From: Pedobacter zeaxanthinifaciens
GTDB taxonomy: Bacteria; Bacteroidota; Bacteroidia; Sphingobacteriales; Sphingobacteriaceae
Length of the DNA stretch: 64,000 nt
Reading direction: 5' to 3'
Assembly: GCF_003313335.1 (NCBI RefSeq)
Contig: NZ_QMHP01000003.1
Location: forward strand, 62,001 to 126,000
The notes beneath the pieces were generated by a model. That model searched no databases. It was not told the DNA's origin and saw nothing but the letters and a program-made list of their open reading frames with translations. Made by a program: the position numbers and the translations under genes. Shown piece by piece: positions 6,191 to 38,267 of the stretch; within the stretch, counting starts at the first letter, position 1; every line of letters starts with the position of its first letter.

Positions 6191-6196
6191 GCTTAA

Positions 6197-6931: not shown

Positions 6932-7004
6932 TTAATTTTGGTTGTTTAGATGGTTGAAGTATGGGTTTTTAGCCTTTGCGGGCTCAACACTTATTACTCA
7001 CCAC

Positions 7005-8702
7005 TTAAATTTTAATTCCTTTTATATTCAGCTGTAAACGCCTTTTATCTTTCCAAATGTTTTCTTCTATGGTATAACAAATAGAAAACGGCTGGTTTGG
7101 TTTTAACAATTTTTCAAATTCGCCCAAGTTAAAACCGATAGCTTCAAAAATAGTTGAATTTTGTTGTTTTACATTTATTTTTAAATGTTTTGCACCTACT
7201 ATCTGCGGAAATCCCACTAAGCTTACCTGTTGACTGATAAAAACTGGCGCTAAATTTTGCGGACCAAATGGTGCCATTTGCGATAAAATTCTGAAGAACT
7301 TACCATCAATTTGTTGCAGCTCAATACAAGCATCGATATTAATTTCTGGAATAAGTAAAGACGGATGAATACTGCCAGCTACCACCTGTTCAAAACGTTC
7401 AGCAAACAATGGCAAGTTTTCCGGTGCAATGGTTAATCCAGCGGCATATTTGTGCCCTCCAAACTGGATGAGCAAATCGCTACATTCTACCAAGGCTTCG
7501 TACAAATCGTAACCCACTACCGACCTTGCCGAACCCGTATAATTTCCATTGGAGTGCGTTAACACAATGGTAGGCCTATAGTATTTCTCCGTTAACCTTG
7601 ATGCTACAATCCCAATTACGCCCTTATTCCAGCTGTCTTGGAAAACAACCGTTGTTTTTCTATTAATCAATACTTCATCCTGTTCAATAATAGCCAATGC
7701 TTCAGCGGTAATATCTTGATCAAAGCTCTTTCTTTCCGAGTTTTGCAGGTTAATTAGTGCGCTTTGTTCATCAGCGATAAAGACTTCGTTGCTCAACAAC
7801 ATTTTTACAGCTTCGCTGGCATGTCCCATTCTCCCTGCGGCATTAATGCGGGGCGCCAGCATAAATACCACATCCGAAATGCTATAATTTTCGGTTTTAC
7901 CGGCTATTTGCATTAATGCTTTCAGCCCCATTGATGGTTGCTGGTTCAACTTCAGCAAGCCATAATAGGCCATCACCCTATTTTCGTCGACAATGGGAAC
8001 AATATCCGCAGCGATACTCACCATGCACAAATCAAGGTATTGCTCGTAAAGCTCGTCAGGCAAATCATTGGCCATGCAATAGGCTTGTGCCAACTTCAAA
8101 CCAATGCCGCATCCGGCAAGTTCCTTAAACGGATAGTCACAATCGTTACGTTTTGGATCCAGCACCGCCACAGCATTGGGCAGTTGCTCGCCCGGCAAAT
8201 GGTGATCGCAGATGATAAAATCGATACCCAAGCCATGAGCATAAGCTACTTTATCAACAGAGCGTATGCCACAATCCAATGCAATAATTAATGAAAAGCC
8301 GTTAGCCTTGGCAAAATCTATTCCCTGCGTGGATATACCGTAACCTTCGGCGTGCCTATCTGGAATGTAAAAATCAATATTGGCGGTAAACTGACTAAAA
8401 AACTGATAACATAGGGCCACTGCAGTTGTACCATCTACATCATAATCACCATATACCAATACTTTTTCGTTACTAGTTATGGCATTTTGTATCCTTACAA
8501 TGGCTGCCTCCATATCCTTCATTAAAAAAGGATCATGTAAATGGGCTAACTGAGGCCTAAAAAAATGGCGGGCATCCTCAAACGAACAAATTCCACGCTG
8601 CACTAAAATGCTAGCCAAACTGCGGTCAATATTCAGTTGCTGGGCAAGTTCATCAACCTTCTCCTCATCATCGCACTTACTAATTACCCATCGTTTATTC
8701 AT
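7005..8702 (-). CDS. recJ: Single-stranded-DNA-specific exonuclease RecJ
   Basis: 565 aa with the start chosen at 8702 (MNKRWVISK). The frame stays open to an ATG at 8819, but that would overlap the divergent hydrolase gene and its -7 element, and the extra 39 residues are unlike RecJ. RecJ is a 5'-3' ssDNA exonuclease in recombination and mismatch repair. Seen: GDYDVDGT (85-92), DCG near 143, the DHH motif (Asp166-His167-His168), and the DHHA1 motif GGHKYAAGL in the C-terminal half, followed by an OB-like tail. All metal-binding motifs appear intact. It stands alone, 73 bp upstream of lptB. Confidence 0.95.
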   Translation of the reverse strand: MNKRWVISKCDDEEKVDELAQQLNIDRSLASILVQRGICSFEDARHFFRPQLAHLHDPFLMKDMEAAIVRIQNAITSNEKVLVYGDYDVDGTTAVALCYQFFSQFTANIDFYIPDRHAEGYGISTQGIDFAKANGFSLIIALDCGIRSVDKVAYAHGLGIDFIICDHHLPGEQLPNAVAVLDPKRNDCDYPFKELAGCGIGLKLAQAYCMANDLPDELYEQYLDLCMVSIAADIVPIVDENRVMAYYGLLKLNQQPSMGLKALMQIAGKTENYSISDVVFMLAPRINAAGRMGHASEAVKMLLSNEVFIADEQSALINLQNSERKSFDQDITAEALAIIEQDEVLINRKTTVVFQDSWNKGVIGIVASRLTEKYYRPTIVLTHSNGNYTGSARSVVGYDLYEALVECSDLLIQFGGHKYAAGLTIAPENLPLFAERFEQVVAGSIHPSLLIPEINIDACIELQQIDGKFFRILSQMAPFGPQNLAPVFISQQVSLVGFPQIVGAKHLKINVKQQNSTIFEAIGFNLGEFEKLLKPNQPFSICYTIEENIWKDKRRLQLNIKGIKI

Positions 8703-8750
8703 AGTTATGGCATTTTTTTTCGTTGCAGACCTATTATCAAAGCCTGTACG

Positions 8751-8758
8751 TATATTTG
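8751..8758 (+). promoter_or_regulatory. -7 element TATATTTG upstream of the MBL-fold gene
   Basis: Exact TAnnTTTG match about 41 nt before the ATG at 8800. A TTG lies at 8723-8725, spacing 25, slightly longer than usual. It sits in the recJ divergent region. Confidence 0.5.
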
Positions 8759-8799
8759 CAACCTGTAAATATATCATTAATTTTCTTTCGTAAAAAAAG

Positions 8800-9570
8800 A
8801 TGGCTATACAAGTTTTCACCTTATCAGAAGGTTCATATTCGGTTGATGCAAGTAAGAAATTTATTCCTTTTGATCCTCAGAAAGATAATCCTAAAGACCG
8901 ACCTGCGTCTTTGTTTATCCATGTACAGCCATTTTTAGTGAAACTGGAAAACAGCTTGGTGCTTTTAGATACTGGATTAGGTTACAGCAACGCCGAAGGA
9001 AAATTACATCTGCATGAAAACATTCGTAAAGCAGGTTTCGATCCTGATGATGTAGAGCTGGTGTTGATGTCGCACTTACACTTTGATCACTCGGGTGGTA
9101 TGGTGCACCAACATGATGGCAAAATGGAACTCAGCTTTCCTCATGCTACTTACGTAATGCAGCAGGGCGAGTGGGAAACTGCATTTTCAAGCAAATCTTC
9201 ATCATACTGCACCGAAATTTTTGATTTCATACAGCGCAATGCACAAATCCATTTAATTGAAGACAGCGGCAAGCTAACTAACGAAATCAGCTATGAATTT
9301 ACAGGAGCGCACTGCCCGTATCATCAGGTTTTTTTAATTGAAGATGGGGAGGATAAAGTATTTTTTGGTGGCGATGTACTTCCAGAACCGGAAGAACTCA
9401 TCAGAAAATTTGTAGCCAAGTATGATTACGACGGTCGTAAAGCAATGGAACTTAGGGACGACTTTGGCCTTAGGGCAGCAGCAGAAAAATGGAAATGCTT
9501 ATTTTATCATTCCAAATCCAAAACGCAAGCCTTTGTTGAACTGAACGACGATAAATTTATAATCGTTTAG
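8800..9570 (+). CDS. Metallo-beta-lactamase-fold hydrolase
   Basis: 256 aa, cytoplasmic (no signal peptide). The MBL zinc motif HLHFDHSGG is at residues 92-100, with further ligand candidates in GAHCPYHQV and FFGGDVLPEP and a late His in FYHSKSK. The general layout (conserved LLDTGLG before the zinc motif) resembles the glyoxalase II/lactonase branch of the superfamily. The substrate cannot be read from sequence, and calling it an acyl-homoserine lactonase would be unsupported. It is divergent from recJ and convergent with the receiver gene, with a 4-bp overlap at the 3' ends. Confidence 0.88.
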   Translation: MAIQVFTLSEGSYSVDASKKFIPFDPQKDNPKDRPASLFIHVQPFLVKLENSLVLLDTGLGYSNAEGKLHLHENIRKAGFDPDDVELVLMSHLHFDHSGGMVHQHDGKMELSFPHATYVMQQGEWETAFSSKSSSYCTEIFDFIQRNAQIHLIEDSGKLTNEISYEFTGAHCPYHQVFLIEDGEDKVFFGGDVLPEPEELIRKFVAKYDYDGRKAMELRDDFGLRAAAEKWKCLFYHSKSKTQAFVELNDDKFIIV

Positions 9571-9974
9571 CGGATGGCTTCTAGCAATTCTTTCAATCTA
9601 TCGATAGATAAAGGTTTGGAAATAAATCCTTTGACAGATTTGTAGCTTTTTGCCTTTTCGATGTCATTTTCATAAACAGATGACGATAGCATATACATGT
9701 CGTTATCAACATTTAGGTTAAGGGCTTCGTAAGCTTCTATAAATTCCCAGCCGTTAAGTATGGGCATATTGATATCGATGAGTACCAAATGGGGCAAGGC
9801 TTGGTTAGCAGCAACGAGTTCATTGATGTAATCTATAGCGAGTTGACCGTTATGTTTAGCGCAAATTTGCACGTTATACCCTGTTTTCTCTACAATTTTA
9901 CTGATGATGAAAATGTTGATATCGTCATCATCGATAACGAGAAGGTTAATTTGAGAAGAGTGTATAGGTTGCAT
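9567..9974 (-). CDS. Stand-alone response regulator receiver (CheY-like)
   Basis: 135 aa consisting only of a receiver domain. Acidic pocket Asp15-Asp17 (VIDDDD), phospho-acceptor Asp67 (LIDINMP), Ser97/98 at the switch position and Lys120 in SKPL are all present. There is no output domain, so it must act by protein-protein contact, perhaps downstream of a hybrid kinase elsewhere. Single-domain receivers with this LLVIDDDDINIFI start are frequent in Bacteroidota. The cognate kinase is unknown; no kinase is adjacent. Confidence 0.92.
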   Translation of the reverse strand: MQPIHSSQINLLVIDDDDINIFIISKIVEKTGYNVQICAKHNGQLAIDYINELVAANQALPHLVLIDINMPILNGWEFIEAYEALNLNVDNDMYMLSSSVYENDIEKAKSYKSVKGFISKPLSIDRLKELLEAIR

Positions 9975-10056
9975 CTTAGTTTATGAAATACGGCTGTTTT
10001 ATACGAAGGTATGTTATTTCATAAATGGATTTCAATAAAGATACATTATTTATTTC

Positions 10057-10086
10057 AAAAAAAAATCCGAGCAAAACTCGGATTTT
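10057..10086 (-). terminator. Rho-independent terminator of the YceI gene
   Basis: On the minus strand AAAATCCGAG-TTTTG-CTCGGATTTT followed by a T-run of nine, 24 bp after the YceI stop codon. Confidence 0.85.
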
Positions 10087-10109
10087 CTAAACACCTATTT
10101 AATAGGAGA

Positions 10110-10697
10110 TTATTTTTTTGCAACTAAGTTTACGCTAATAGTGAAATCATCGTAGATAAAGTTGTCGCCAATGCTACTGAAGATAGATTTTGATTTGTAT
10201 TCGATACCATATTTAGTTCTATCAACTACAATTTTTTCAGCAACGGCACTCACCGATTTATCTGCGTTCCAAGTAAGTTTAGCTGGGAAACTTACCGAGT
10301 TGGTTTTACCTTTGATTGTTAAATCACCAGTAATTTTAACATCAGCGCCAGATCCTTCCACTTTTTTAATCACGAAGTTTGCAGCAGGGAATTTTTCAAC
10401 ACCAAAAAAGTCGTCATTTTTCAAGTGTTTTTCTAAGCCAGCACTTCCGTCAGCATCTTTAATTGTAGTCATGTTAGCTACAAAGCCACCACCAACTAAT
10501 TTTTTACCTGTAAATTGTAAAGTTCCTGAAGTTAATGCCACAGTACCATTGTGTGATCCTGAGAATTTTTTACCTTCCCAAGTAACAGTTGATTTTGCCG
10601 CATCTACAGTGTAAACATCAGCCCTTGGCGCAAATGCCAAAAAAGAAAAGCTAGCCACTACAGCTAACATTAAAATAGAAGTGATTTTTAGTTTCAT
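10110..10697 (-). CDS. YceI family protein (secreted lipocalin-like)
   Basis: 195 aa. Signal peptide (MKLKITSILMLAVVASFSFLA) and a YceI domain: YTVDAAKSTVTWEGKK, GSHNGTVAL, KHLKNDDFFGVEKFPAANF, and GDLTIKGKTNSVSFPA. YceI proteins are beta-barrels that bind isoprenoid or fatty-acid ligands, and are often periplasmic and induced by base or osmotic stress; the role here is inferred. A TACATTTG -7 element lies about 23 nt before the ATG and a strong terminator follows, so this is a monocistronic unit. Confidence 0.93.
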   Translation of the reverse strand: MKLKITSILMLAVVASFSFLAFAPRADVYTVDAAKSTVTWEGKKFSGSHNGTVALTSGTLQFTGKKLVGGGFVANMTTIKDADGSAGLEKHLKNDDFFGVEKFPAANFVIKKVEGSGADVKITGDLTIKGKTNSVSFPAKLTWNADKSVSAVAEKIVVDRTKYGIEYKSKSIFSSIGDNFIYDDFTISVNLVAKK

Positions 10698-10720
10698 ATT
10701 GATGAATAGTTTAATACAAG

Positions 10721-10728
10721 CAAATGTA
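10721..10728 (-). promoter_or_regulatory. -7 element TACATTTG of the YceI gene
   Basis: CAAATGTA on the plus strand, an exact TAnnTTTG on the minus strand, about 23 nt before the ATG at 10697. No -33 TTG was found. Confidence 0.5.
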
Positions 10729-10780
10729 TTTAATTTCTATTCACTTCGTATTGACCTATGTTAAGATTTTACAATTTTGT

Positions 10781-10868
10781 GTTGGGTGCGTTGGTTTGTT
10801 GGTCGTTTGGTTCATTGGTCATTGGTGGGTTGGTTATTGGTTATTGGTTCATTAATCATTAACCATTA
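10781..10868. repeat. Low-complexity TTGGT-rich intergenic stretch
   Basis: Between the YceI promoter and mutL, about 85 bp are built from variants of ttggt/ttattggtt/cattggt, ending in a short inverted echo (tggttcattaatcattaacca). No ORF or other signal is seen. It probably arose by slippage-type expansion. Confidence 0.6.
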
Positions 10869-10926
10869 CACCACTCTCATCTCCTTTAGTATCAACCATA
10901 TGAAAACATGACTGTTGGTTAAGGCT

Positions 10927-10934
10927 TATTTTTG
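10927..10934 (+). promoter_or_regulatory. -7 element TATTTTTG of mutL
   Basis: Exact TAnnTTTG match, about 30 nt before the mutL ATG at 10965. No well-spaced -33 element was seen. Confidence 0.45.
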
Positions 10935-10964
10935 TAAATTAGCGGCTTTTAGAAAGCGAAATAA

Positions 10965-12812
10965 ATGTCCGATATCATTCAACTTTTACCCGATAGTGTA
11001 GCCAATCAAATAGCAGCAGGAGAAGTAGTGCAAAGGCCGGCTTCGGCAGTAAAAGAATTGCTTGAAAACGCTCTTGATGCCGGTGCAGATAAAATCCAGT
11101 TAATTATTAAAGATGCGGGTAAAGCTTTAATCCAAGTTATTGATAACGGTTGCGGCATGAGCGTAACTGATGCCCGTATGTGCTTTGAACGCCACGCCAC
11201 TTCTAAAGTACGCAAAGCGGATGATTTATTTGCCATCCGTACCATGGGTTTTAGAGGCGAGGCCATGGCTTCTATTGCTGCTATTGCGCAAGTGGAGATG
11301 AAAACCAAACGCCATGAAGATGAAGTAGGAACTTTAGTGGAAATTGAAGGTTCTACAATTACCAAGCAAGAACCCATAGCAACAGGTAACGGAACTAGCA
11401 TTTGTGTTAAAAACTTATTTTACAACACGCCTGCCCGTCGTAATTTCCTTAAAAGCAACCCAACTGAAATGCGCTACATTATTGACGAGTTTCAGCGGGT
11501 GGCATTGGCAAAACCACATATTGCTTTTAGCTTACACCATGATGGCAACGAAATTTACCGCTTGCCAGCCGCTACCATCAAACAGCGTATTGTGCATTTG
11601 TTTGGTAATAATTATAATGAACGTTTAATTCCAGTTGAAGAAGAAACTACAATTATAAATTTGAAAGGCTACATTGGCAAGCCCGAATTTGCGAAGAAGA
11701 CTCGTGGAGAACAGTTTTTCTTCGTTAATGATAGGTTTATTAAGGATAATTACCTGAACCATGCCGTTAATAAAGCGTACCAAGAATTATTGCCAGATGA
11801 CAACTTCCCATTGTACGTGTTGTTTATTGATATCGATCCTGCGAAAATTGATGTTAACGTTCATCCAACTAAAACTGAAATCAAGTATTTAGACGAAAAA
11901 TCTATTTACGCCATTATACATTCGGCCGTAAAACGTTCGCTTGGCAGGTTCAATATTAGTCCAACATTGGATTTTAACCAGGAAACGGCCTTTAGCAATA
12001 TGATTACGCCAAAAGCGCCGGAAGATATTGTACCGCCTAGCATTTCATTCAATCCCGACTTTAACCCTTTTGGAACACCGAAAACTGCTAGTCCGAAAAC
12101 CACGTATTTTAAAGAACAATATCAGCCAAAAGAGGTGAGCCAAAACTGGGGTTCGTTGTACGAGATTACTAATTACAGCCAACCTGAGCAAACCACTATT
12201 GCACTGAACGACGATAAAAATGATGAGCTTATTGCTACGACTAACAAGCAATACATGCAAATTCACAACCGATATATTGTGTCGCAAATTAAATCGGGGG
12301 TAATGGTAATTGATCAACAAGCGGCTCACGAGCGGATTTTGTATGAACGCTTTTTACTGCATTTGGAAGATCGGAAAGGTGCTTCACAGCAAAGCCTTTT
12401 CCCACAAACCGTAAACTTAAATGCTAGCGATTTTGAATTGGCGAAAAGCTTGCTGGATGATATCAAAAGTTTGGGTTTCGATGTACGAGAATTTGGCAAA
12501 AACACGTTAATTATTGATGGTATTCCGGTTGATTTAGGCAGTACCAATATTAACGAAACGCAACTTTTTGAAGATTTAATTGAAGGCTTTAAAAACTCTC
12601 AGCAAGAATTGAAGTTAAATAAACGCGATGCACTGGCCAGAAGCATGGCCAAAAACAGTGCAATAAAGGCGGGCACAGCGTTAAGTCAGCAAGAAATGAA
12701 CAATTTAATTGACGAACTTTTTGCCTGCAAAACGCCTAACTTTAGTATTAATGGGAAGCCCGCTATACAAACCATCACTTTGGCAGAATTAGCACAAAAA
12801 TTTGAAAAATAG
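10965..12812 (+). CDS. mutL: DNA mismatch repair protein MutL
   Basis: 615 aa. GHKL ATPase that links MutS mismatch recognition to excision. N-terminal motifs: ELLENALDAGA (31-41), DNGCGM (60-65), GFRGEA (95-100) and the transducer segment with VNVHPTKTEIKY. The C-terminal domain begins after about residue 430 and carries DQQAAHERILYE, where the endonuclease consensus DQHAxxExxxxE has Gln for His, and the end (CKTPNFSINGKPAI) departs from the CPHGRP motif. Nicking activity is therefore uncertain. First gene of a mutL-rhomboid-rhomboid-EEP run with tight spacing (15 bp, overlap, overlap). Confidence 0.96.
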   Translation: MSDIIQLLPDSVANQIAAGEVVQRPASAVKELLENALDAGADKIQLIIKDAGKALIQVIDNGCGMSVTDARMCFERHATSKVRKADDLFAIRTMGFRGEAMASIAAIAQVEMKTKRHEDEVGTLVEIEGSTITKQEPIATGNGTSICVKNLFYNTPARRNFLKSNPTEMRYIIDEFQRVALAKPHIAFSLHHDGNEIYRLPAATIKQRIVHLFGNNYNERLIPVEEETTIINLKGYIGKPEFAKKTRGEQFFFVNDRFIKDNYLNHAVNKAYQELLPDDNFPLYVLFIDIDPAKIDVNVHPTKTEIKYLDEKSIYAIIHSAVKRSLGRFNISPTLDFNQETAFSNMITPKAPEDIVPPSISFNPDFNPFGTPKTASPKTTYFKEQYQPKEVSQNWGSLYEITNYSQPEQTTIALNDDKNDELIATTNKQYMQIHNRYIVSQIKSGVMVIDQQAAHERILYERFLLHLEDRKGASQQSLFPQTVNLNASDFELAKSLLDDIKSLGFDVREFGKNTLIIDGIPVDLGSTNINETQLFEDLIEGFKNSQQELKLNKRDALARSMAKNSAIKAGTALSQQEMNNLIDELFACKTPNFSINGKPAIQTITLAELAQKFEK

Positions 12813-12827
12813 AAGTAGCATTACAAA

Positions 12828-13565
12828 ATGAATAACATACAAATACCTCCAGTAGTAAAAAATCTTTTGATCATCAACGGCATCATGTTGCTGGCTTCAT
12901 GGGTTTTTGAGCAGCAACAAGGAAGAGAGTTGTCCGAATTATTAGGGGCTTACTATTTTGATTCTCCGAATTTTAAAGTTTGGCAAATTTTCACCTATAT
13001 GTTCATGCATGCGGATATTTCGCATTTATTTTTCAATATGTTCGGTTTGTTTATGTTTGGTGGCATCCTTGAGCATAAATGGGGACCAAAAAAATTCCTT
13101 AACTTTTACTTTATTACTGGACTTGGTGCACTAGCGTTGCAATGGCTAGTGCAAGGAATTGAAGTTTATCAAATTACCGGTTCATTTTTAAACAAAAGCT
13201 CCTTACCGTTAGAGTTGTTTGCCGAAGGCAAATTTAATCCAAATGTTTTTTCTCCAAGTCAAGCCTCAACACTTTACTCATCTTATTTTGGCCCAATGGT
13301 TGGCGCCTCGGGCGCTGTTTTTGGTGTGATGACTGCCTTTGCGGTAATGTATCCAAACATGGAGCTGATGCTTTTGTTTATTCCATTCCCGGTTAAAGCA
13401 AAATATTTTATTCCCATTTACATCGTTATAGAATTGTTTTTAGGTGTAGCTCGTATTCCGGGAGATTCTATTGCGCATTTCGCCCATTTAGGCGGTGCTT
13501 TAATAGGATTTATTTTAGCGAAAATTTGGAAGGATAAAGACAGATTTTACAATTACTATGAATAA
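12828..13565 (+). CDS. Rhomboid family intramembrane serine protease
   Basis: 245 aa, about six membrane segments. Rhomboids cleave transmembrane substrates within the bilayer. Seen: HADISHLFFNMFGLFMFG (61-78, the HxxxxHxxxN segment), the catalytic GASGAVFG with Ser161, and AHFAHLGGALIGF with the partner His220. All dyad residues are present, so it is probably active. An insertion of about 35 residues (113-150) sits between TM3 and TM4. It starts 15 bp after mutL and overlaps the second rhomboid gene by 8 bp. Confidence 0.93.
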   Translation: MNNIQIPPVVKNLLIINGIMLLASWVFEQQQGRELSELLGAYYFDSPNFKVWQIFTYMFMHADISHLFFNMFGLFMFGGILEHKWGPKKFLNFYFITGLGALALQWLVQGIEVYQITGSFLNKSSLPLELFAEGKFNPNVFSPSQASTLYSSYFGPMVGASGAVFGVMTAFAVMYPNMELMLLFIPFPVKAKYFIPIYIVIELFLGVARIPGDSIAHFAHLGGALIGFILAKIWKDKDRFYNYYE

Positions 13566-14391
13566 CAACTTTGGAGATTTACGGTATCGATTTTTTAAAT
13601 CGGGCAACCCTGCAATGCTATACATTGCAATTAATATTATTGTATTTATAGTAGTTGGAGTAGGTAGTTTGTTTTTACCAGCAAACATGGGCGATTACTA
13701 CGTTAATGAATATTTGGCTTTTCCAGCGGATATTGCCCAGTGGCCTTTTAGATTTTATACTATAGTTAGCTATGCTTTTTTACATGGTGGATTATTACAC
13801 ATCCTTTTTAACCTGCTTTGGTTGTATTGGATGGGAAACTTATTTCTGGATTTCTTAAAACCTCGTCAATTTCAGGTGGTGTATTGGGGCGGTGCAATTG
13901 TAGGTGCCTTGGCATTTGCATTGATATTTAACTTAAGTCCGCAGTTGGACAGTAAAAATGCAACACTTATTGGAGCTTCGGCCGCTGTTATGGCTATTTT
14001 TAGCGCAATTGCCACGCTAGTTCCAAATTACAGTGTCCGTTTATTGCTATTTGGCGATGTAAGATTGAAATATTTGTTGTTGGTATATGTGCTTATTGAT
14101 GTGGTGGGCGTTACTCCAAGATCGATGAACATTGGTGGCAATTTAGCCCATTTAGGTGGTGCACTATTTGGTTTCATCTATATCAAATCACTTCAAAGAG
14201 GAACTGACCTAAGCAGTTTTCTGATAAAAAAACCTAAGTTAAAGGTAATCAAAAACGAAAAACCTAAACAAAAAAGCGCCGCGGTAAACCAAGTAGAAAT
14301 TGACGCTATTTTGGATAAAATTTCAAAGAGTGGCTACGAAAATTTAACGGCAAAAGAAAAACAAACTTTATTCGACGCAAGTAAAAACTAA
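13558..14391 (+). CDS. Rhomboid family protease with C-terminal DUF6576-like tail
   Basis: 277 aa. Six membrane segments with HGGLLHILFNLLWLYWMG (76-93), a catalytic-type GASAAVMA (Ser141) and NLAHLGGALFGF (His198). The GASA sequence is a slight change from GASG, but Ser and His are kept. After the last membrane segment comes a basic linker and a short soluble tail (DAILDKISKSGYENLTAKEK), a small domain found on many Bacteroidota rhomboids. It overlaps the preceding rhomboid by 8 bp and the next gene by one base (TAATG), showing translational coupling. Confidence 0.92.
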   Translation: MNNNFGDLRYRFFKSGNPAMLYIAINIIVFIVVGVGSLFLPANMGDYYVNEYLAFPADIAQWPFRFYTIVSYAFLHGGLLHILFNLLWLYWMGNLFLDFLKPRQFQVVYWGGAIVGALAFALIFNLSPQLDSKNATLIGASAAVMAIFSAIATLVPNYSVRLLLFGDVRLKYLLLVYVLIDVVGVTPRSMNIGGNLAHLGGALFGFIYIKSLQRGTDLSSFLIKKPKLKVIKNEKPKQKSAAVNQVEIDAILDKISKSGYENLTAKEKQTLFDASKN

Positions 14392-15524
14392 TGAGCCAGA
14401 AAGCAAAGCTTCCTTTATTCGATAAATTGATGTTAGTGTTGGCAGTAATTCTGCTGGTAATTTTGGCTATGGGAATGTTGGCCGGACAAACCAATCCAAA
14501 GGACAATGTATGGATTGCCTTTGCGGGATTAGGCTATACATTTGCATTGATAGCTAACGTACTCTTTGTGATTTTTTGGTTATTTAGACGACAGCTTTTA
14601 TTTGCTGCAATTACTTTAGGCATTATCCTTATTGGTTGGAAACCGCTAACTGCAACGTATCGTTTTAGTGGGGAGGAAGGCGGAAACAAAAAAGACAGTG
14701 AACACTATGTACGTTTAATGACATATAACGTACATCAGTTCAAAAAATATGGAGAGAATAATGATGTTTCTACCAAAGATCAAATCATTAAACTGATTGA
14801 AGATCAGCACCCAGATGTGGTTTGCTTTCAGGAGTTTTTTAGCAGGAAAAAGGGCGAATTTGATTTGATAGATAGTGTAAAAAACCGTCTGAAATTAAAG
14901 CATTATTATTTCGCTCCTTCGGTAGATAATAACTATGAAGCCGCAGGCCTGGCCATATTTTCCCGCTATCCTATTCAAAATAAGGGGCGAATTTCTTTTG
15001 GCGAGTTTGCCGGTAACAGCAGCATTTATGTTGACTTAAAAATTGAAAATCAGGATTTTAGAATTTATAACGTACATTTCCAATCCATCTCATTTCAAAA
15101 GGAAGATTACGATTATATTGGGAAAGTAGCTAAAATGGATCCCGAGTATAAATCTTCGAGAAGGATTGCCAGCATGTTAAAATCAGCCTTTTTTAGAAGA
15201 AGTGAGCAAGTAAAACTGATGAAATCTGAAATGCAGCAATGCAAGCTCCCGTATGTGATTGCTGGCGATTTTAATGATACTCCGGCGTCGTATAGCGTTA
15301 CACAGATTACCAGTTCGCTGAAAAATGCATTTAAAGAAAAAGGAAGTGGCTTTGGTAAAACCTACAATGGTGATTTCCCTAATTTCCAAATTGACTACAT
15401 TGCCACCACCAAAAATTTCGATATCATCAATCACCACATTTCCAAAGAAAAACTATCCGATCACTTTCCAGTTAGAAGTGATTTGAGGCTGAATTTCTCA
15501 ATGGAAAGTGACGATGCGTATTAA
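14391..15524 (+). CDS. Endonuclease/exonuclease/phosphatase (EEP) family protein, membrane anchored
   Basis: 377 aa. Three hydrophobic segments in the first 85 residues anchor a catalytic domain of the EEP superfamily: MTYNVHQF, VVCFQEFF (metal-binding Glu), GLAIFSRYPI, VHFQS, AGDFNDTP (Asp/Asn pair), IDYIA and LSDHFPV (catalytic His). EEP enzymes hydrolyse phosphodiesters in nucleic acids, inositides or sphingomyelin; the topology suggests an extracytoplasmic substrate, but which one is unknown. Last gene of the mutL run. Confidence 0.9.
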   Translation: MSQKAKLPLFDKLMLVLAVILLVILAMGMLAGQTNPKDNVWIAFAGLGYTFALIANVLFVIFWLFRRQLLFAAITLGIILIGWKPLTATYRFSGEEGGNKKDSEHYVRLMTYNVHQFKKYGENNDVSTKDQIIKLIEDQHPDVVCFQEFFSRKKGEFDLIDSVKNRLKLKHYYFAPSVDNNYEAAGLAIFSRYPIQNKGRISFGEFAGNSSIYVDLKIENQDFRIYNVHFQSISFQKEDYDYIGKVAKMDPEYKSSRRIASMLKSAFFRRSEQVKLMKSEMQQCKLPYVIAGDFNDTPASYSVTQITSSLKNAFKEKGSGFGKTYNGDFPNFQIDYIATTKNFDIINHHISKEKLSDHFPVRSDLRLNFSMESDDAY

Positions 15525-25806: not shown

Positions 25807-28800
25807 TTGAATACCTACAGCAAAAACAAATACAGCATCTTAATTTGCGGCATCTTGCTCGCATTGCTTTATGGATGCTCCTCTCAAAAAGACACCGTTG
25901 CCAATAGGAAGCTCCAAAATCTATCGGCAAGATATAACCTTATTTACAACTCTAATGTTTTAATGGATGAATATTTAGAGGGAATCAATCAAAGTAACAA
26001 AGAAAATTTTGACAGCTTTTTACCGCTTTACTACGCACCACCGTTAGCAGAAGCGGCTACTGCTGGCACCAAAGTGAAGCAGCTGGATGAAATAGACCAG
26101 AAAGCCCGCACCATTATTGCTGAAAAAAACTTCAGTAATTACATTGATGATGCGTACATCCTTTTAGGAAAAACCAATTTTTATCAGGGCAAATATTATA
26201 ATGCCAATGCCTATTTTGATTATGTAGCTAATGCTTACAAAAAAAACCACAAGGTATATTTAAATGCATTGAACTGGAAAGCTAGAACGCTTTTGGAATT
26301 GGAGGATCTTAATGGTGCCGAAAAGGTAATTGACACGGTTAAAATTGAGCTTGATTCGGTAAAAAGAGGAAAGGCAGAAGCTTTAGCGACTATTGCACAA
26401 ATTAACATGATCAAAGGCAATGAACTACAAGCTATTGATTATTTGGAAAAGGCCTTGAAAGCTGGCTCAACCAATCTTAATAAAATCCACTGGACATATA
26501 CATTGGCGCAGCTTTACGAAAACCAAAAACAGTTCGATAAAAGTTTAGCGAGTTACAGAAAAGTAGAGAAAAGTAATGCCGCTTTTGACATGTATTTTAA
26601 TGCAAAATTAAGCCGTATTAGGATTAATGAACAACTAGCTGGCAAAAATTTTGACAGGAATGCGGCCTTATTAAGAATGCTGAAAGATGATAAAAATGCT
26701 GATTTTAAGGATCAGATTTATTTCGAAATTGCGGAAGACTATTATGCCGACAATAACTTTGGTAAGGCCGAAGAGTACTACAATTTATCTGTACGCAATA
26801 GCACTAGCAACAATGTGCAAAAAGCAATGTCGTATTTAAAAATAGCCGATTTAAACTTTAAGCATTACAATGATTACGTTGCCGCAAAGCAGTATTACGA
26901 TAGCACAGCTTTAACGCTTCCAAAAACGCATCCACTTTATACATCCATTGCCAATAAGGCCGAAAATTTGGCCTATTTACAACAACGTTACGAAACTATT
27001 TCCCTACAGGACACTTTACAGCGTATTGCTTCTTTACCAGATGCTCAACGTCCTTCGGCTTTAAGCAATTATTTCGCATCGTTAGAACAACCTAAAATAG
27101 TTGCCGGTAATGGCACTTCGGGTGGCGGTCAACAGGGCGGCAAAGCTAATGGCTCTTCATTTTCGTCGGGCAACAGTTCTTTTTATTTCGCAAATGCCAA
27201 TGCCATTAGTAGAGGCTTTAACGAGTTTAAAAAGCGTTGGGGCAACAGAAAATTAGAACCTAACTGGCGACAAAGCAACAAGTCAAGTCAGGAGCAAACC
27301 TTGACAGCGGTAGCGGTTAACGACGGCATTGGGGCTTTACCTACAAGTCCTGATAACGCGGCAGCGCAATCCAATGCCGGAGCAAACAAAGCAACATTAT
27401 ATCTGGACTCTATCCCGCTCACTCCGGTCCAATTGGAGGCATCCAATCAAAAGTTAATTAATGCTTATTTAGAAATGGGCAGTTTCTATCAGCAAGTGCT
27501 GAACGATAAGCCAGAGGCTATTAAAACTTATCAAACTTTGTTAAAGAGATTTCCGAACAATGCAAAACTTGATATGATTTATTACAGCTTGTACCTAGCT
27601 AACCAAGGCATTGACAACGGGAAAGTGACTGAGTATAAAAATTTGGTATTGAGCAAATATCCCAATTCCGTTTATGCAAAAATAATACTAGACCCTAATT
27701 TTTCCGCTAAACAAAATCAGCTAGAAGCTACCTTAAATAGAACGTACGAAACGCTATTTACCAAACTCCAAAGCAAAGAATTTGGCGATGTAATTACAGG
27801 GGTAAATGCAATTAACCAGCGTTTTCCAGGCAATGCAATGGAAGCGCAATATGCCTATTTAAAGTCCATCGCTATAGGCCGAACTGAAAATGTAGATCAA
27901 TTATTGGCCGCATTTAATGAAATAGCCGAAAAGTACAAGGCAGACAAATTGATAAAGCCATTGGTTGATCAGCATATTGTTTACGTAAATGCGCATTTAC
28001 CAGAGTTTAAAAAGCGAAAAATTGCTTTGCCAAGTTACGACCCTAATGAGTTACCATTTGCGGAAAACAAAACTGGCATCAGACTAAATGAGCCAATTAT
28101 AGCCAATGTGCTTGATCCATCTGGTAACAAAAAAATTTACGTAGCTCCTCCAGTTGAAAAACCTATTGAAAAGCCTGTTGAGAAACCTCAGGTAAAAGAA
28201 CCGGTGATAGCCAAAGCAGCACCTAAACCAGAACCAAAGGAATCAGTAAAAGAGGTAAAAAAAGAACCTGTTGTAGCGCCTATTGAGAAGAAAAAAGATA
28301 CTGTAGTGGCGAAGTTGCCTGAAGTTAAAAAAGATAGCGCAATTATTGCTTCTGTACCGAAAAAGGATAGCGTAATTATTGCTGCAGCACCAAAAAAAGA
28401 CAGTGTTGCTACAGCCACTATCAAACCGGAACCGGTGAAGGAAACATTGTTTAATCCGGCTTCTTCAAGCACCTACTACCTAGTGGTTGCAGTTAATACC
28501 AACACCTTAAATGTAAGTAGCTCTCGTTTTGGCATTGGCCAGTTTAATCGCGGAAACTACGCCGGTAATAATTTACGCCACCAATTGAGGGAGCTTGACC
28601 AAGATCAGTTGATTATTGTGGGCGACTTTAACAGCGTAACTAACGTACAAGCATATTATCAGAACATAAAACCACAATTAGGCAGAATTATGAAAGTACC
28701 TGCCGCTAATTATACTACCTTTGCTATTAGTAAGGAAAACCTAGAAAAAATCACCAACCGTGACACTTTAGAAAGGTACATCAGATACATCAGCAACAAT

Positions 28801-28809
28801 GAATTATAG
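25807..28809 (+). CDS. porW: Type IX secretion/gliding lipoprotein PorW (SprE)
   Basis: 1000 aa. PorW/SprE is a periplasmic-side lipoprotein needed for type IX secretion and gliding. Seen: lipobox LYGC (Cys24), TPR-like repeats from about residue 110 to 400 and again 555-720, a Gly/Ser-rich loop near 438-455, a Lys/Glu/Pro/Val-rich linker (about 790-880) and a compact C-terminal domain (about 890-1000). The start is TTG at 25807: a stop (TAA) is at 25798 in frame and the next ATG comes after the lipobox, so only TTG keeps the signal peptide. It overlaps the penicillin-binding protein gene by 11 bp. Confidence 0.88.
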   Translation: MNTYSKNKYSILICGILLALLYGCSSQKDTVANRKLQNLSARYNLIYNSNVLMDEYLEGINQSNKENFDSFLPLYYAPPLAEAATAGTKVKQLDEIDQKARTIIAEKNFSNYIDDAYILLGKTNFYQGKYYNANAYFDYVANAYKKNHKVYLNALNWKARTLLELEDLNGAEKVIDTVKIELDSVKRGKAEALATIAQINMIKGNELQAIDYLEKALKAGSTNLNKIHWTYTLAQLYENQKQFDKSLASYRKVEKSNAAFDMYFNAKLSRIRINEQLAGKNFDRNAALLRMLKDDKNADFKDQIYFEIAEDYYADNNFGKAEEYYNLSVRNSTSNNVQKAMSYLKIADLNFKHYNDYVAAKQYYDSTALTLPKTHPLYTSIANKAENLAYLQQRYETISLQDTLQRIASLPDAQRPSALSNYFASLEQPKIVAGNGTSGGGQQGGKANGSSFSSGNSSFYFANANAISRGFNEFKKRWGNRKLEPNWRQSNKSSQEQTLTAVAVNDGIGALPTSPDNAAAQSNAGANKATLYLDSIPLTPVQLEASNQKLINAYLEMGSFYQQVLNDKPEAIKTYQTLLKRFPNNAKLDMIYYSLYLANQGIDNGKVTEYKNLVLSKYPNSVYAKIILDPNFSAKQNQLEATLNRTYETLFTKLQSKEFGDVITGVNAINQRFPGNAMEAQYAYLKSIAIGRTENVDQLLAAFNEIAEKYKADKLIKPLVDQHIVYVNAHLPEFKKRKIALPSYDPNELPFAENKTGIRLNEPIIANVLDPSGNKKIYVAPPVEKPIEKPVEKPQVKEPVIAKAAPKPEPKESVKEVKKEPVVAPIEKKKDTVVAKLPEVKKDSAIIASVPKKDSVIIAAAPKKDSVATATIKPEPVKETLFNPASSSTYYLVVAVNTNTLNVSSSRFGIGQFNRGNYAGNNLRHQLRELDQDQLIIVGDFNSVTNVQAYYQNIKPQLGRIMKVPAANYTTFAISKENLEKITNRDTLERYIRYISNNEL

Positions 28810-33163: not shown

Positions 33164-34102
33164 TTAGTACTCCCAAAGTCCTTGCTCCATATCTGCCATT
33201 TTTTTCTTGATACGCTCGCTCTCTAACAAACGCTGACGAGGATCACTGATTAGATCTTTTACTTTGTAGTCGCCCGCATTAGTTTCTTTCACAATATTAC
33301 TTGAAAACAAACGGTGGATAAAGAAATCATCCATGCTTAATGGTGAAGAATCATTTAAAGAACTAAACAATCTTTTGGTTGCCAAAATGTCTCTAGCCTC
33401 TTCATAAGCAATCCAAAATACTGGTTGCCACTCCTTGGTTTGGTCATTTAGCTTTAATGGAGCTATAGCAATGATACGAGGTTCAAAAACGCCTCTTTTA
33501 CCATCAAACACCCAGTCTTCCTTAATTCTGAATTTTAAAAATAAAGCCGGGTTAAATTCGCCAGCAACTTGCGTTACTGTACCGGTTTTATTATTAGTTA
33601 CGTTTACGGTACCATTAGCCAATCTAATTGCTTCAGTGGTATCTAAAGGAAAATCAAAGTTATCTACATCATCCAAAGTTGTTGGATTTTTAGGATTGTA
33701 GGCTGTTAATTCTTCATTTTTAATGTGATTTAACAACACTTCAATTAATCTCGCCTTCGGATAATTAAGTACACCGTTAATGGTATCACGCAAATCGATA
33801 TCTCTCCAAACACGCTTTGTATAAACTACATCTTCATCTTTAATGACAGGTAAAAAAGCCTTTTCCGAAGCTGTATCTCTCAGTTCACGTTCAATAGCAT
33901 AACCGTCCTTTGGTTTCACTTTAGGCGCTTTTTTAGGCTTCTCTACCGCTGCTGTTGGCGGAGCAGTTTGTACAGGAGCTGCTGTTGTAACCGGTGTGGA
34001 TACTGCAGGCTTCTTAGTTTGAGTAGTGGTTTTTTTCTTCTGAGCAAAACCAACAACCGCTAAGGCCATTAAAAAAAACAGTGATAACGTAATCTTTTTC
34101 AT
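33164..34102 (-). CDS. gldN: Type IX secretion ring protein GldN/PorN
   Basis: 312 aa with start at 34102 (MKKITLSLFFLMALAVVGFAQ, a full signal peptide); an in-frame ATG at 34123 adds seven residues and is possible. GldN forms, with the lipoprotein GldK, the periplasmic ring attached to the outer membrane in the T9SS. After a Lys/Thr/Pro/Ala-rich linker (about 20-70), the core is the GldN domain (ELRDTASEKAFLPVIKD, VWRDIDLRDTINGVLNYP, DWVFDGKRGVFEPRIIAIAP). Intact. Last gene of the gldKLMN operon; a hairpin lies in the spacer from gldM. Confidence 0.93.
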   Translation of the reverse strand: MKKITLSLFFLMALAVVGFAQKKKTTTQTKKPAVSTPVTTAAPVQTAPPTAAVEKPKKAPKVKPKDGYAIERELRDTASEKAFLPVIKDEDVVYTKRVWRDIDLRDTINGVLNYPKARLIEVLLNHIKNEELTAYNPKNPTTLDDVDNFDFPLDTTEAIRLANGTVNVTNNKTGTVTQVAGEFNPALFLKFRIKEDWVFDGKRGVFEPRIIAIAPLKLNDQTKEWQPVFWIAYEEARDILATKRLFSSLNDSSPLSMDDFFIHRLFSSNIVKETNAGDYKVKDLISDPRQRLLESERIKKKMADMEQGLWEY

Positions 34103-34128
34103 CTGTATCATTTTTGTTTTCACTTGAT

Positions 34129-34174: not shown

Positions 34175-34417
34175 TTATTTTACTGTAAATACCAATGCAG
34201 GTAATACTTTTTGTCTTCCATCAGGACCTTGAGAAACAATTTGATCAAAAATAACCCTAGTACCTGGAGAAACCGCATTAATTGCACTTCTCACCGCACC
34301 AGTAAAGTTACCGCCCTGTCCTGAAATGGTAATCGCATCTGAACGTGGTTTAATAACTGTTAGCTCAAATCTCACTATCTTAAACTTCACATCAAATGGG
34401 AAGTCGTCCAAATCAGC
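34175..34417 (-). pseudogene. gldM: C-terminal (D4) domain of gldM after the in-frame TAG
   Basis: 80 codons directly after the TAG at 34418-34420, in the same frame as gldM: ADLDDFPFDVKFKIVRFELT through ISGQGGNFTGAVRSAI and SPGTRVIFDQIVSQGPDGRQ to the end. This is the conserved final domain of GldM/PorM. A TTG at 34411 would permit initiation, but no start signals are seen and the fragment alone has no signal peptide. It is best read as the separated end of one gene: nonsense mutation, sequencing error, or readthrough. No frameshift is involved. Confidence 0.85.
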
Positions 34418-35698
34418 CTAAATTTCCGACTCGCTTTTTAACTGTACCGAAGCAATATCTCCACCGCCATAGCCACCTACTTTAGCTACCGGAGCAGGGA
34501 TTGCTTTCACTCTGAACTTAGGCGCACCTAAATTAACCGTTTTACCATCGTTAGTACCAGTAACACTTATCGACACTTCTTTCCCTACCAAAGAACCCGG
34601 AACGTTAATCATATATTTACCGCCGCTACCGCTTAATGAACCTCCACTAATTGTGGCATTTACACTTGGGAAACCCGGTGCAGAGATAGTAAACGGATTT
34701 GGTATACCTGCATAAATAACGTTCAGCTTATCAGAAGAAACTGTTGCAGAAGGCGCAGCTACTTGATAAGTTTGAGGTTTAGTTTCGTAGGTTTTGATAT
34801 TTCCGTTTCTCTCTTTAACTCTAATTGTACCTTTCCATGTAAAAGTTCCAACACTACCTGTACCGCCGGTATAAACACCTTTGCCTTTATCAGTTGGCAC
34901 TTTATTACCGTTTACACTAATATCAGGACTTGATTTTGAATCACTTGCGGTTAAATAAATCTCTGCTTTATAAGGCTGTCCCTGAATCACATAAGACGTA
35001 GGTGCCACCGCAACAGCTTCAAATTGATCTAGCACTACAATAGGCTTATCGGCCAAAATTTTATTGATAATATCAGCTTCCATGTTTTTAGCATCATTTT
35101 GAATCATCGTTAAAATGGTTCTAAACGCAGCTAAAGGCACACCTTCACCAAAATTATTGCCGGTCCATGTTTTCGGTTCGCCTGCTTTAGGCTTAGCCGG
35201 ATCTAATGCCTGCAATACGAAAGTTGGCTTACCTTCGTCAGCCTGCAATAGTGCTGCTAACTTTTTACCAGTTTCGTTAATTTTTGCTTGTAGCTTTTTA
35301 CCTTCTTTATTTTCAGCGTCATTACCCATGATATTTTGACCAATATCTAGGTTGTTTTTCTGCACCAAGTCGCCGTTTTCATCAAAGCCATCAGCTGCAA
35401 TTTTCTTCTGAAGATTATCAATATAGCTAATTAAATCTTCGCCTATTTTCTGCGCTTCCTTTGCTCTATTAAGCTTCAACAAATTGTCGCCACTTTCTTT
35501 TGCTTTGGTGCTTTCGTAATTTCTTAAAAGTTGAGTGATATTATTTCCAACGTTCTCTTTGGAAGTATTTAAGCTATCATTAATATTTCTGAAAGCCTTT
35601 AACACCAAATCCGAAACGTTAAGGGCAAGCATAGCTAGTAGTACCAAATACATGATACCAATCATCTTCTGCCTTGCCGTTTCCTTACCTCCTGCCAT
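34418..35698 (-). CDS. gldM: Type IX secretion motor protein GldM/PorM, stopped by in-frame TAG at codon 427
   Basis: 426 aa as read; about 507 residues if the TAG is crossed, which is the usual GldM size. GldM is anchored by one N-terminal helix (KMIGIMYLVLLAMLALNVSD) that packs with GldL as the proton-driven motor, and reaches through the periplasm with domains D1-D4 to the GldKN ring. Here D1-D3 are present (helical coiled region to about 225, then beta domains) and the frame ends at KSESEI-TAG. The missing D4 follows in the same frame. As read, the truncated product would lack the part that should contact the ring (established model; effect here is inference). Confidence 0.9.
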   Translation of the reverse strand: MAGGKETARQKMIGIMYLVLLAMLALNVSDLVLKAFRNINDSLNTSKENVGNNITQLLRNYESTKAKESGDNLLKLNRAKEAQKIGEDLISYIDNLQKKIAADGFDENGDLVQKNNLDIGQNIMGNDAENKEGKKLQAKINETGKKLAALLQADEGKPTFVLQALDPAKPKAGEPKTWTGNNFGEGVPLAAFRTILTMIQNDAKNMEADIINKILADKPIVVLDQFEAVAVAPTSYVIQGQPYKAEIYLTASDSKSSPDISVNGNKVPTDKGKGVYTGGTGSVGTFTWKGTIRVKERNGNIKTYETKPQTYQVAAPSATVSSDKLNVIYAGIPNPFTISAPGFPSVNATISGGSLSGSGGKYMINVPGSLVGKEVSISVTGTNDGKTVNLGAPKFRVKAIPAPVAKVGGYGGGDIASVQLKSESEI

Positions 35699-35736: not shown

Positions 35737-36543
35737 TTAAGCACGTGGTTGGTTCATAGCCGTTAACATATTGCCATAAATAGCATTTAACGACGAAAGA
35801 TTTTTTGCTAGCTTACCAACTTCTTCTTTAAACTGTTTGGAGTCCTCCATAGAATCGTTGAAGTTATCCATTGTTAAAGCGATATTTTGGTAAAATTTAT
35901 TCATTGATTTGAAATGAGCACTAGAATCTTGTAACTCTAACTCATAAACCGCGTTTAACGCAGATAAATTTTTCGCTAAATTATTTACTTGTTCGTGATA
36001 AGCTTTAGAATCAGCGTTGCTTGCACCTAATTCCGCTAACTGAGCGGTAGCTTTATCAAAAGCGATATTCATATTACCAAGGCTATCACTAGCACCTTTA
36101 ACTTTAGCAGTAAATTCAGTAGTTGCCATTGAAGCGTCAGCAACATTTGAAATACCAGCAACTTTATCGCTAAACGTACGTAAACCGTTACCTAAGCTTT
36201 CGATCAACTCTGGACCAATTTTTTCATTCACTAATTTGTCCAAAGCACTGGTAGCACCGCCACCACCAACAGCTGCTTGTGGAATTGCATCAATTGGAGT
36301 TGGCTTACCATCTTTACGCAACTGCGGATAAACTTTATCCCATTCTACATCTGGATGTGGAGGAAACAAACCCCCGATTAAGAACAAAAAGGCCTCAACT
36401 CCAAGTCCTACACCAATCATGATACTTCCCCAAACGCCTCCCAAGTGAAGAATTTTAAATAACGCACCTACAATTACAATTGCTGCACCAACAGAGGTTG
36501 CAAGATGCAGTTTAGCTTCATTTGTAGCATATTTTCCAGCCAT
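35737..36543 (-). CDS. gldL: Type IX secretion motor protein GldL/PorL
   Basis: 268 aa. Two closely spaced membrane helices (about 15-33 and 38-61: GAAIVIVGALFKILHLGG, MIGVGLGVEAFLFLIGGLF), the second with the functionally important Glu in GVEAFLF, then a cytoplasmic helical part rich in Ala/Asn/Ser that contains a repeated NLAKNLSxLNAxYxxxL segment (two copies, about residues 190-205 and 245-260). With GldM it forms the ion-driven motor of T9SS and gliding. 38 bp from gldM. Confidence 0.95.
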   Translation of the reverse strand: MAGKYATNEAKLHLATSVGAAIVIVGALFKILHLGGVWGSIMIGVGLGVEAFLFLIGGLFPPHPDVEWDKVYPQLRKDGKPTPIDAIPQAAVGGGGATSALDKLVNEKIGPELIESLGNGLRTFSDKVAGISNVADASMATTEFTAKVKGASDSLGNMNIAFDKATAQLAELGASNADSKAYHEQVNNLAKNLSALNAVYELELQDSSAHFKSMNKFYQNIALTMDNFNDSMEDSKQFKEEVGKLAKNLSSLNAIYGNMLTAMNQPRA

Positions 36544-36592: not shown

Positions 36593-37915
36593 TTAATTCA
36601 AGATGTTGTTACCTGGATAATGCGATACGCATCTGAAACCAATGTACGACCTAGGCACGTCCTGATATTCATGCTGCGCAACCGAATTTTGAAGGAAAAA
36701 TCCGATGTCTTTCCAAGAGCCACCTTTCACTACTTTTCTTCTGCCTCTTCTAAAAATTGGGTTTTTGTCTTCAGGTAGTGAAGTATTGTAAGAGTTCAAA
36801 GTCCACTCAGCTACGTTACCAGCCATGTTGTATAAGCCATAATCATTTGGCAAATAAGCTCTAGCCTCTACCGTATACAATGCACCATCATCTGCATAAT
36901 TACCTCTACCTACTTTAAAGTTTGCCTGTAAACAGCCTTTAGCATTCATAATGTAAGGACCGCCCCAAGGGTATTTCGTCTGAGTTCTCCCCCCACGTGC
37001 AGCGTACTCAAATTCTGCTTCCGTCGGTAAATCATATCTTAACCTAGAGTTCATTGGAAGCTTTCTTTGACGAGCCACATTTTCGTAGAATTGTGTACGC
37101 CAGTTAGTAAAAGCTTTAGCCTGATCCCAAGTAATACCCACTGCCGGATACCTGTCATAAGAAGGGTGGTTAAAATAAGCCTCCACCATCGGATCGTTAT
37201 ACTCATAAGTATAGTCTTTTCTCCACACAAGCGTATCAGGATACACCATTACAGATGGATGCTCATTAACTTTACCAGGAGTAGGATTATCTGTGTAGAT
37301 ATCATAATCATCAATACGCTGCCTGTTTGGAGAAGCCGAATTCTCTAAAGCCATATCAGAGTTTTTCTCTACATAAGCATAGCGCAATAACTTGATATCG
37401 ATATCCTTATCGTTTCTACCATGGGTAAAATTAGAAAGGTTATCGTTGATATACATCGCTTTTAGCTTGGTTTGTACATCAGTTTTTTTGTTATTCCAAA
37501 GATTTGATCCGTTGCCTACTTTTCTCCAGTCAATTACTTTGAATTTCTGGGCCCCAGCGGCAGCATTACCTTTTGGTTTAATAAAATAATCGTCGATATT
37601 ACCTTTAGTGATAGCGATAGAATCTCTTACCCAATTTACAAATTGCCTGTATTCGGCATTGGTGATTTCGGTTTGGTCCATAAAGAACGGGCTCATAGAA
37701 ACCATTTTGCTTTGCTTGCCCTGATAAAAAGTAATGTCCTCATCAGTCATGCCCAAAAGGTTCCTACCGCCAGGAACATACACCATCCCCAACGGGATTG
37801 TATTGTTTTTAAATTTTCTGTTATAGGCTCCCACCAATTCTCCCTGACCACCTTTTCCACAGCTAGAAAGCAGTAAAGCTAGTGAGGAAATTGCAAGAAA
37901 GTAAAATTTCTTCAT
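36593..37915 (-). CDS. gldK: Type IX secretion lipoprotein GldK/PorK
   Basis: 440 aa with start at 37915 ([20 protein letters not shown], lipobox LSSC). The frame is open to an ATG at 37969, but those 18 extra residues would break the signal peptide. The FGE-sulfatase-like fold is seen in GMVYVPGGRNLLG, QTEITNAEYRQFVNW, AVGITWDQAKAFTNWRTQF, LPTEAEFEYAARGG and VAEWTLNSYN...VVKGGSWKD..FRCVS. With GldN it forms the outer-membrane-associated ring of T9SS. First gene of gldKLMN. Confidence 0.95.
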   Translation of the reverse strand: MKKFYFLAISSLALLLSSCGKGGQGELVGAYNRKFKNNTIPLGMVYVPGGRNLLGMTDEDITFYQGKQSKMVSMSPFFMDQTEITNAEYRQFVNWVRDSIAITKGNIDDYFIKPKGNAAAGAQKFKVIDWRKVGNGSNLWNNKKTDVQTKLKAMYINDNLSNFTHGRNDKDIDIKLLRYAYVEKNSDMALENSASPNRQRIDDYDIYTDNPTPGKVNEHPSVMVYPDTLVWRKDYTYEYNDPMVEAYFNHPSYDRYPAVGITWDQAKAFTNWRTQFYENVARQRKLPMNSRLRYDLPTEAEFEYAARGGRTQTKYPWGGPYIMNAKGCLQANFKVGRGNYADDGALYTVEARAYLPNDYGLYNMAGNVAEWTLNSYNTSLPEDKNPIFRRGRRKVVKGGSWKDIGFFLQNSVAQHEYQDVPRSYIGFRCVSHYPGNNILN

Positions 37916-38267
37916 ATGTTGTCTAAGCAATTTTATAGCAATTTTATCAATTAACATTGAGATTAACAACTATTCGCACAAAAAAATCCACACTTTTTGC
38001 GACAAAATAATTTATTAACATTTTGTTTTTGTTAAAACCATTGGTTTTTAAGCATAAATAGCTTGTTCTTGTTAACTAAAAAACAGTTCAAATACCTCTA
38101 AATTAGCACAAAAAGCGAACTTTTAATTATCCGATTTTGTAAGCCAGTACAAGTTAACGCCATCAACAACAAATTATTGCTTTGACATATAAAAATTGCA
38201 AAATATTTCCTGCAAGTTATCTGTTAACGAATTGCTTTTCAATACCTAAAACTAGGTATCTTTAAAA
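37916..38267. other. 352-bp AT-rich gldK upstream region
   Basis: It carries the gldK promoter region on the minus strand but no exact TAnnTTTG was found. It contains A/T runs, short ttaac/gttaa motifs, and a 6-bp hairpin ATACCT/AGGTAT (about 38241-38258) that lies just after the hemD stop and could be a weak terminator. No ORF. Confidence 0.4.

What the first reader, a model, noticed from the sequence alone, without database searches (positions are those of the whole stretch)
34175..35698. gldM interrupted by an in-frame TAG with the conserved D4 domain intact behind it
Seen directly: the minus-strand frame of gldM reads ...KSESEI-TAG-ADLDDFPFDVKF and continues 80 codons to a normal stop, with no frameshift and no other damage. 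The total of about 507 residues is the usual GldM length. Established: GldM D4 is the distal periplasmic domain that should contact the GldK/GldN ring. Possible readings: a recent nonsense mutation (loss of T9SS), an assembly or sequencing error, or stop readthrough. All other T9SS genes here (gldK, gldL, gldN, porW) look intact, so a recent or artefactual change fits best; the undamaged D4 also allows readthrough.
Basis: partly seen in the sequence, partly recalled or inferred. Interest (0 to 1): 0.78.

Follow-up and report, generated by a model that had tools for sequence, protein, structure and literature searches.

The report
Recent nonsense allele of Pedobacter gldM
In one Pedobacter genome the gene for GldM, the shaft of a protein-secretion and gliding motor, carries a premature stop that cuts off most of its last domain; this looks like an ordinary recent loss-of-function mutation (or, less likely, a base-call error) rather than a new way of reading genes.

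Summary
gldM has one in-frame TAG at 34418-34420 (codon 427), then 80 open codons to TAA. The stop lies inside D4, leaving 26 of its 106 residues. The genome has no other GldM or D4 match. Relatives have Glu there in 59 of 64 aligned rows. Of 143 gldM-bearing genus genomes only this one has an in-frame stop; two have frameshifts. uvrC, a control, is split in 4 of 144, so gldM is not unusually fragile. The tail is as constrained as the rest, so the stop is probably recent. Readthrough lacks support: no CUA tRNA found, RF1 intact, TAG ends 17 of 52 window ORFs. GldK, GldL, GldN, PorW/SprE and SprA are intact and 34 cargo sorting tails remain. Best reading: a recent loss-of-function allele uncoupling the GldLM motor from the GldKN ring. 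A gldM stop-codon mutant arose in phage-exposed Flavobacterium columnare (PMC9233685). Sequencing error cannot be excluded.

The parts
34418..35698 (-). gldM up to and including the premature stop: 426 residues with the N-terminal part, D1, D2, D3 and the first 26 residues of D4
34418..34420 (-). in-frame TAG at codon 427; Glu in 59 of 64 aligned relatives
34175..34417 (-). open tail of 80 codons and TAA, encoding the rest of D4 (Pfam GldM_4th, E=7.4e-19)
33164..34123 (-). gldN, intact (TIGR03523)
35737..36543 (-). gldL, intact (TIGR03513)
36593..37969 (-). gldK, intact (TIGR03525)
25807..28809 (+). porW/sprE, intact (NF052312)

Best explanation
A recent nonsense substitution in a functional gldM. 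Shown: one codon is a stop, the rest of the gene is undamaged and conserved, and no other GldM or D4 match was found in the genome. Inferred: translation ends at residue 426. The product keeps the membrane anchor and D1-D3 but only 26 of 106 D4 residues, so D4 cannot fold. In the P. gingivalis homologue, D4 is what binds PorN (PMC5790014 and PMC12421860, passages seen). The GldL-GldM motor would therefore be disconnected from the GldK-GldN ring, and type IX secretion (and any gliding) would be lost or badly impaired. The allele may have risen in culture or under phage pressure: a phage-resistant gldM stop-codon mutant is reported for F. columnare (PMC9233685, Table 2, passage seen).
For: One stop, no frameshift. 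Glu at the codon in 59 of 64 aligned relatives. In-frame stop in 1 of 143 gldM-bearing genus genomes. Against the seven nearest relatives (L031-L037) dN/dS is 0.025-0.064 in the tail and 0.020-0.053 before the stop; against P. nanyangensis the tail has 26 synonymous and 4 non-synonymous codon differences in 80. No other GldM or D4 match in the genome. RF1 intact, no CUA tRNA found, TAG a common stop. The T9SS parts that were checked are intact. Literature precedent.
Against: No reads and no second strain of this species were available, so a base-call error is not excluded. Secretion was not tested. There is no excess of broken gldM in the genus (3 of 143) over broken uvrC (4 of 144), so a selective origin is only analogy. 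A weak, post hoc excess of private residues in the tail could mean that the stop is not brand new.
Confidence: 0.7

Rival explanations
1. Sequencing, assembly or mixed-culture error: the cell has an intact gldM and the stop is only in the file.
For: Single-codon event with an undamaged, constrained tail; an artefact predicts the same picture. Other genus assemblies show split gldM or uvrC, some in fragmented drafts such as G061 with 380 contigs.
Against: The assembly is good (26 contigs, 99.96% complete, 0.02% contaminated). Of 32 P. nanyangensis ORFs with a match in the window, 28 match cleanly; the four flagged are gldM, one cut by the window edge, and two whose stop lies upstream of the window's own start.
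Confidence: 0.18
2. Functional stop readthrough or suppression gives enough full-length GldM.
For: The tail is conserved; the reading frame is kept.
Against: No CUA-anticodon tRNA among 40 tRNA genes nor among 7 pattern hits; RF1 intact; TAG ends 17 of 52 ORFs; no notable RNA structure after the stop (z -1.48); none of 64 aligned relatives has a stop at this codon. A recent mutation predicts the same conserved tail.
Confidence: 0.05
3. A GldM without D4 works in this strain, so the truncation is tolerated or changes coupling to the ring.
For: GldK, GldL, GldN, PorW/SprE and SprA are intact and 34 cargo sorting tails remain: no decay in the parts checked.
Against: In the genus set every listed full-length GldM match runs to query residue 503 or beyond, that is through D4; the tail is under strong constraint; D4 is the PorN-binding part in the homologue (PMC5790014, PMC12421860, passages). 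A recent loss would also leave the other genes intact.
Confidence: 0.05

Closest known systems
GldM/PorM, T9SS motor protein (TIGR03517; Pfam GldM_1st, 2nd, 3rd, 4th)
   Same: Domain order, length, gldKLMN gene order, sequence
   Different: In-frame stop inside D4
gldM stop-codon mutant of phage-exposed Flavobacterium columnare (PMC9233685, Table 2, passage seen)
   Same: Premature stop in gldM
   Different: There it arose in an experiment and the isolate was phage resistant; here it is in a genome of unknown history. Where in gldM that stop lies was not seen.
Frameshifted gldM in other Pedobacter genomes (G009; P. agri PB92, L073)
   Same: Broken gldM within the genus
   Different: Frameshifts, not a nonsense codon; may include assembly errors

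Membership tests
GldM/PorM (TIGR03517) | N-terminal region and D1-D3 present | tested here: met
   Truncated frame scores 285.4 bits against a cut-off of 180; Pfam GldM_1st, 2nd, 3rd
GldM/PorM (TIGR03517) | complete D4 in the translated frame | tested here: not met
   Stop at 427 inside D4 401-506
GldM/PorM (TIGR03517) | gldK-gldL-gldM-gldN gene order | tested here: met
   with ORF coordinates
GldM/PorM (TIGR03517) | working secretion motor | not testable with these tools
   needs a secretion assay
Programmed or suppressed stop readthrough | suppressor tRNA reading UAG | tested here: not met
   none in 40 tRNA genes or 7 pattern hits; the Rfam first look scored 150 of 362 candidates, so not exhaustive
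Programmed or suppressed stop readthrough | stop conserved at the same codon in relatives | tested here: not met
   0 of 64 other aligned rows; in-frame stop in 1 of 143 genus genomes, itself
Reassigned UAG | UAG no longer ends genes, RF1 lost | tested here: not met
   17 of 52 ORFs end in TAG; RF1 483.8 bits over a cut-off of 423.25
Long-standing pseudogene | relaxed selection or further damage | tested here: not met
   no further stop or frameshift; tail dN/dS 0.025-0.064 against the seven nearest relatives; but a weak post hoc excess of private tail residues (p=0.18 alone, 0.024 pooled)

The most novel reading that the evidence does not exclude
The stop is real and the strain still secretes by type IX, either through readthrough or with a GldM lacking D4, which would mean that D4 is not strictly needed to couple motor and ring.
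Probability: 0.08. Interest if true: 0.6.

Novelty: new member of a known kind. Interest (0 to 1): 0.2.

Why it matters
Little as it stands: it flags a genome whose T9SS is predicted to be broken although the T9SS genes checked are present, a caution for annotation by gene presence. If the stop is confirmed, the strain is a natural test of whether D4 of GldM is needed for secretion.

Tried and rejected
Suppressor tRNA: none found. The pattern gave 7 hits against 15 for its backward control; ARAGORN reads the one hit that lies inside a tRNA gene as tRNA-Arg with anticodon TCT.

Reassigned code and loss of RF1: rejected. The 52 ORFs are the 60 less gldM and seven overlapping ORFs.

Separate D4 gene or second GldM: no match in the genome. 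An internal restart after the stop would give a tail without membrane anchor or export signal (inference).

gldM as a hot spot of loss in the genus: 3 of 143 broken against 4 of 144 split uvrC genes, G021, G036, G061 and G111. Left out of the uvrC count: G039, a short match at a contig end, and five full-length rows that list one TAA (G003, G014, G089, G103, G140), which I take from their lengths, without looking, to be the gene's own stop. No enrichment. The gldK search lists many rows with a stop, not examined one by one, and was not used for a rate.

Old pseudogene: a weak hint against my reading. This genome has 2 private residues in the 80-residue tail and 3 in the 426 before the stop (Fisher p=0.18). 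Set against the private residues of nine relatives (2 in the tail, 62 before), p=0.024. The test is post hoc and the counts are tiny; both residues occur at those sites in other rows of the alignment, so I gave it little weight. dS is near saturation in many pairs, so the dN/dS values are rough.

Rows dropped: L073 (frameshifted) and L096 (poorly aligned) from the count of residue 427, leaving 64 of 66 loci.

Literature: searches listed no paper whose title or shown abstract reports a gldM nonsense allele in Pedobacter; one search found nothing, one search listed 12 of 28, and I opened passages of only five papers. PMC8315173 was not held.

Full report
What is there. On the minus strand an ATG at 35698 opens gldM, which reads 426 codons to a TAG at 34418-34420, then 80 more sense codons to a TAA at 34175-34177. 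The part before the stop matches NCBIfam TIGR03517 (GldM) at 285.4 bits (cut-off 180) and Pfam GldM_1st, 2nd and 3rd. The tail alone matches Pfam GldM_4th at E=7.4e-19. Read through, D4 spans residues 401-506, so the stop lies inside D4 and leaves 26 of its 106 residues. In F. johnsoniae GldM the crystal structure gives D4 as 406-513 (PMC5790014, passages).

The genome. The window lies in a 4.25 Mb genome of 26 contigs, 99.96% complete. Its nearest named relatives are Pedobacter species such as P. nanyangensis, P. chitinilyticus, P. ureilyticus and P. xixiisoli, at 91-93% GldM identity. The genome shows one GldM match and one D4 match, so no other gene is seen to supply the lost part.

Relatives. 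At codon 427, 59 of 64 aligned rows have Glu; the others have V (2), F (2) and D (1). Of the 66 loci, L073 and L096 were left out. In the genus set, 143 of 145 genomes have gldM. One (this one) has an in-frame stop, and two have frameshifts: G009 with one and G061 with two. The two genomes without GldM, G046 and G063, show only weak matches to GldK. As a control, uvrC was split in 4 of 144 genomes (rows left out are named under Tried and rejected). Broken gldM is therefore rare but not in excess.

Age of the stop. Against the seven nearest relatives (L031-L037) dN/dS is 0.020-0.053 before the stop and 0.025-0.064 in the tail. Between those relatives themselves the tail gives 0 to 0.09. Against P. 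nanyangensis the tail shows 26 synonymous and 4 non-synonymous codon differences in 80. The tail was thus under selection for most of the time since divergence. A slight excess of private residues in the tail (2, against 3 before the stop; Fisher 0.18 alone, 0.024 against pooled relatives) could hint at a stop that is not brand new. It is post hoc and rests on two sites that vary elsewhere.

Readthrough. Forty tRNA genes were typed and none has a CUA anticodon. A pattern for a CUA anticodon loop with a T arm gave seven hits, none a suppressor. The Rfam first look scored 150 of 362 candidates, so a very divergent tRNA could be missed. RF1 is intact (483.8 bits, cut-off 423.25). TAG ends 17 of 52 window ORFs. 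The RNA around and after the stop folds only a little better than shuffles (z -1.48; 22 of 200 shuffles as good). None of the 64 aligned relatives has the stop. Nothing supports readthrough, though low-level readthrough cannot be excluded by sequence.

State of the T9SS. gldN, gldL, gldK and porW/sprE in the window are intact. SprA is open over 2389 residues. Of 36 C-terminal sorting-signal matches, 34 are over the cut-off with no stop inside the match; of the two below it, one contains a stop. Other T9SS genes (gldJ, porV, the por regulators) were not searched for. Of 32 P. nanyangensis ORFs with a match in the window, 28 match cleanly. The four flagged are gldM; one gene cut by the window's left edge; and two (uroporphyrinogen-III synthase and the ORF at 13558) whose stop lies, by their coordinates, upstream of the window's own start. 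Window 42-64 kb and two ORFs at 3142-4676 had no counterpart in the stretch compared, so they were not checked.

Mechanism, inferred. Truncated GldM would keep its anchor and D1-D3 and could still join GldL, but not the ring. In P. gingivalis, PorM D4 alone suffices to bind PorN (PMC5790014), and a PorM D4 to PorN disulfide was shown (PMC12421860). Secretion would fail. Why such an allele would be found: gliding-gene mutations, most of them stops or frameshifts, arose in phage-exposed F. columnare and gave resistance, one being a gldM stop (PMC9233685, passages with Table 2). A GldM missense change is also cited as giving phage resistance, in a paper on Cellulophaga baltica (PMC13288928, passages). 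For this strain that is analogy only.

Verdict. An ordinary recent nonsense allele, or an error in the record, of a known gene. Reads at 34418-34420 decide between the two.

Noticed in passing
L128 (G009:C1:4287000-4294000), L073: Two other Pedobacter gldM genes are frameshifted: G009 near codon 352 in a single-contig genome, and P. agri PB92 (L073; G061 by matching contig coordinates) with two shifts near codons 100 and 204.
   Followed up: partly
G046, G063: Two near-complete genus members lack a GldM match and give only weak GldK matches, suggesting loss of the T9SS.
   Followed up: no
G029:C12, G122:C1: Second, diverged gldM-like genes (42% and 52% identity to the query) beside the main copy; both lie near a second gldK-like match.
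   Followed up: no
L104:70-146: ARAGORN calls a 77-base tRNA-Ser (TGA) next to two tRNA-Val genes that is not among the Rfam tRNA matches; a pseudogene or false call.
   Followed up: no
L040: Record titled Flavobacteriaceae bacterium PS02338 carries a GldM 86% identical to this Pedobacter one; the label may be wrong.
   Followed up: no
window 4682-15524: This block of genes is inverted relative to P. nanyangensis.
   Followed up: no
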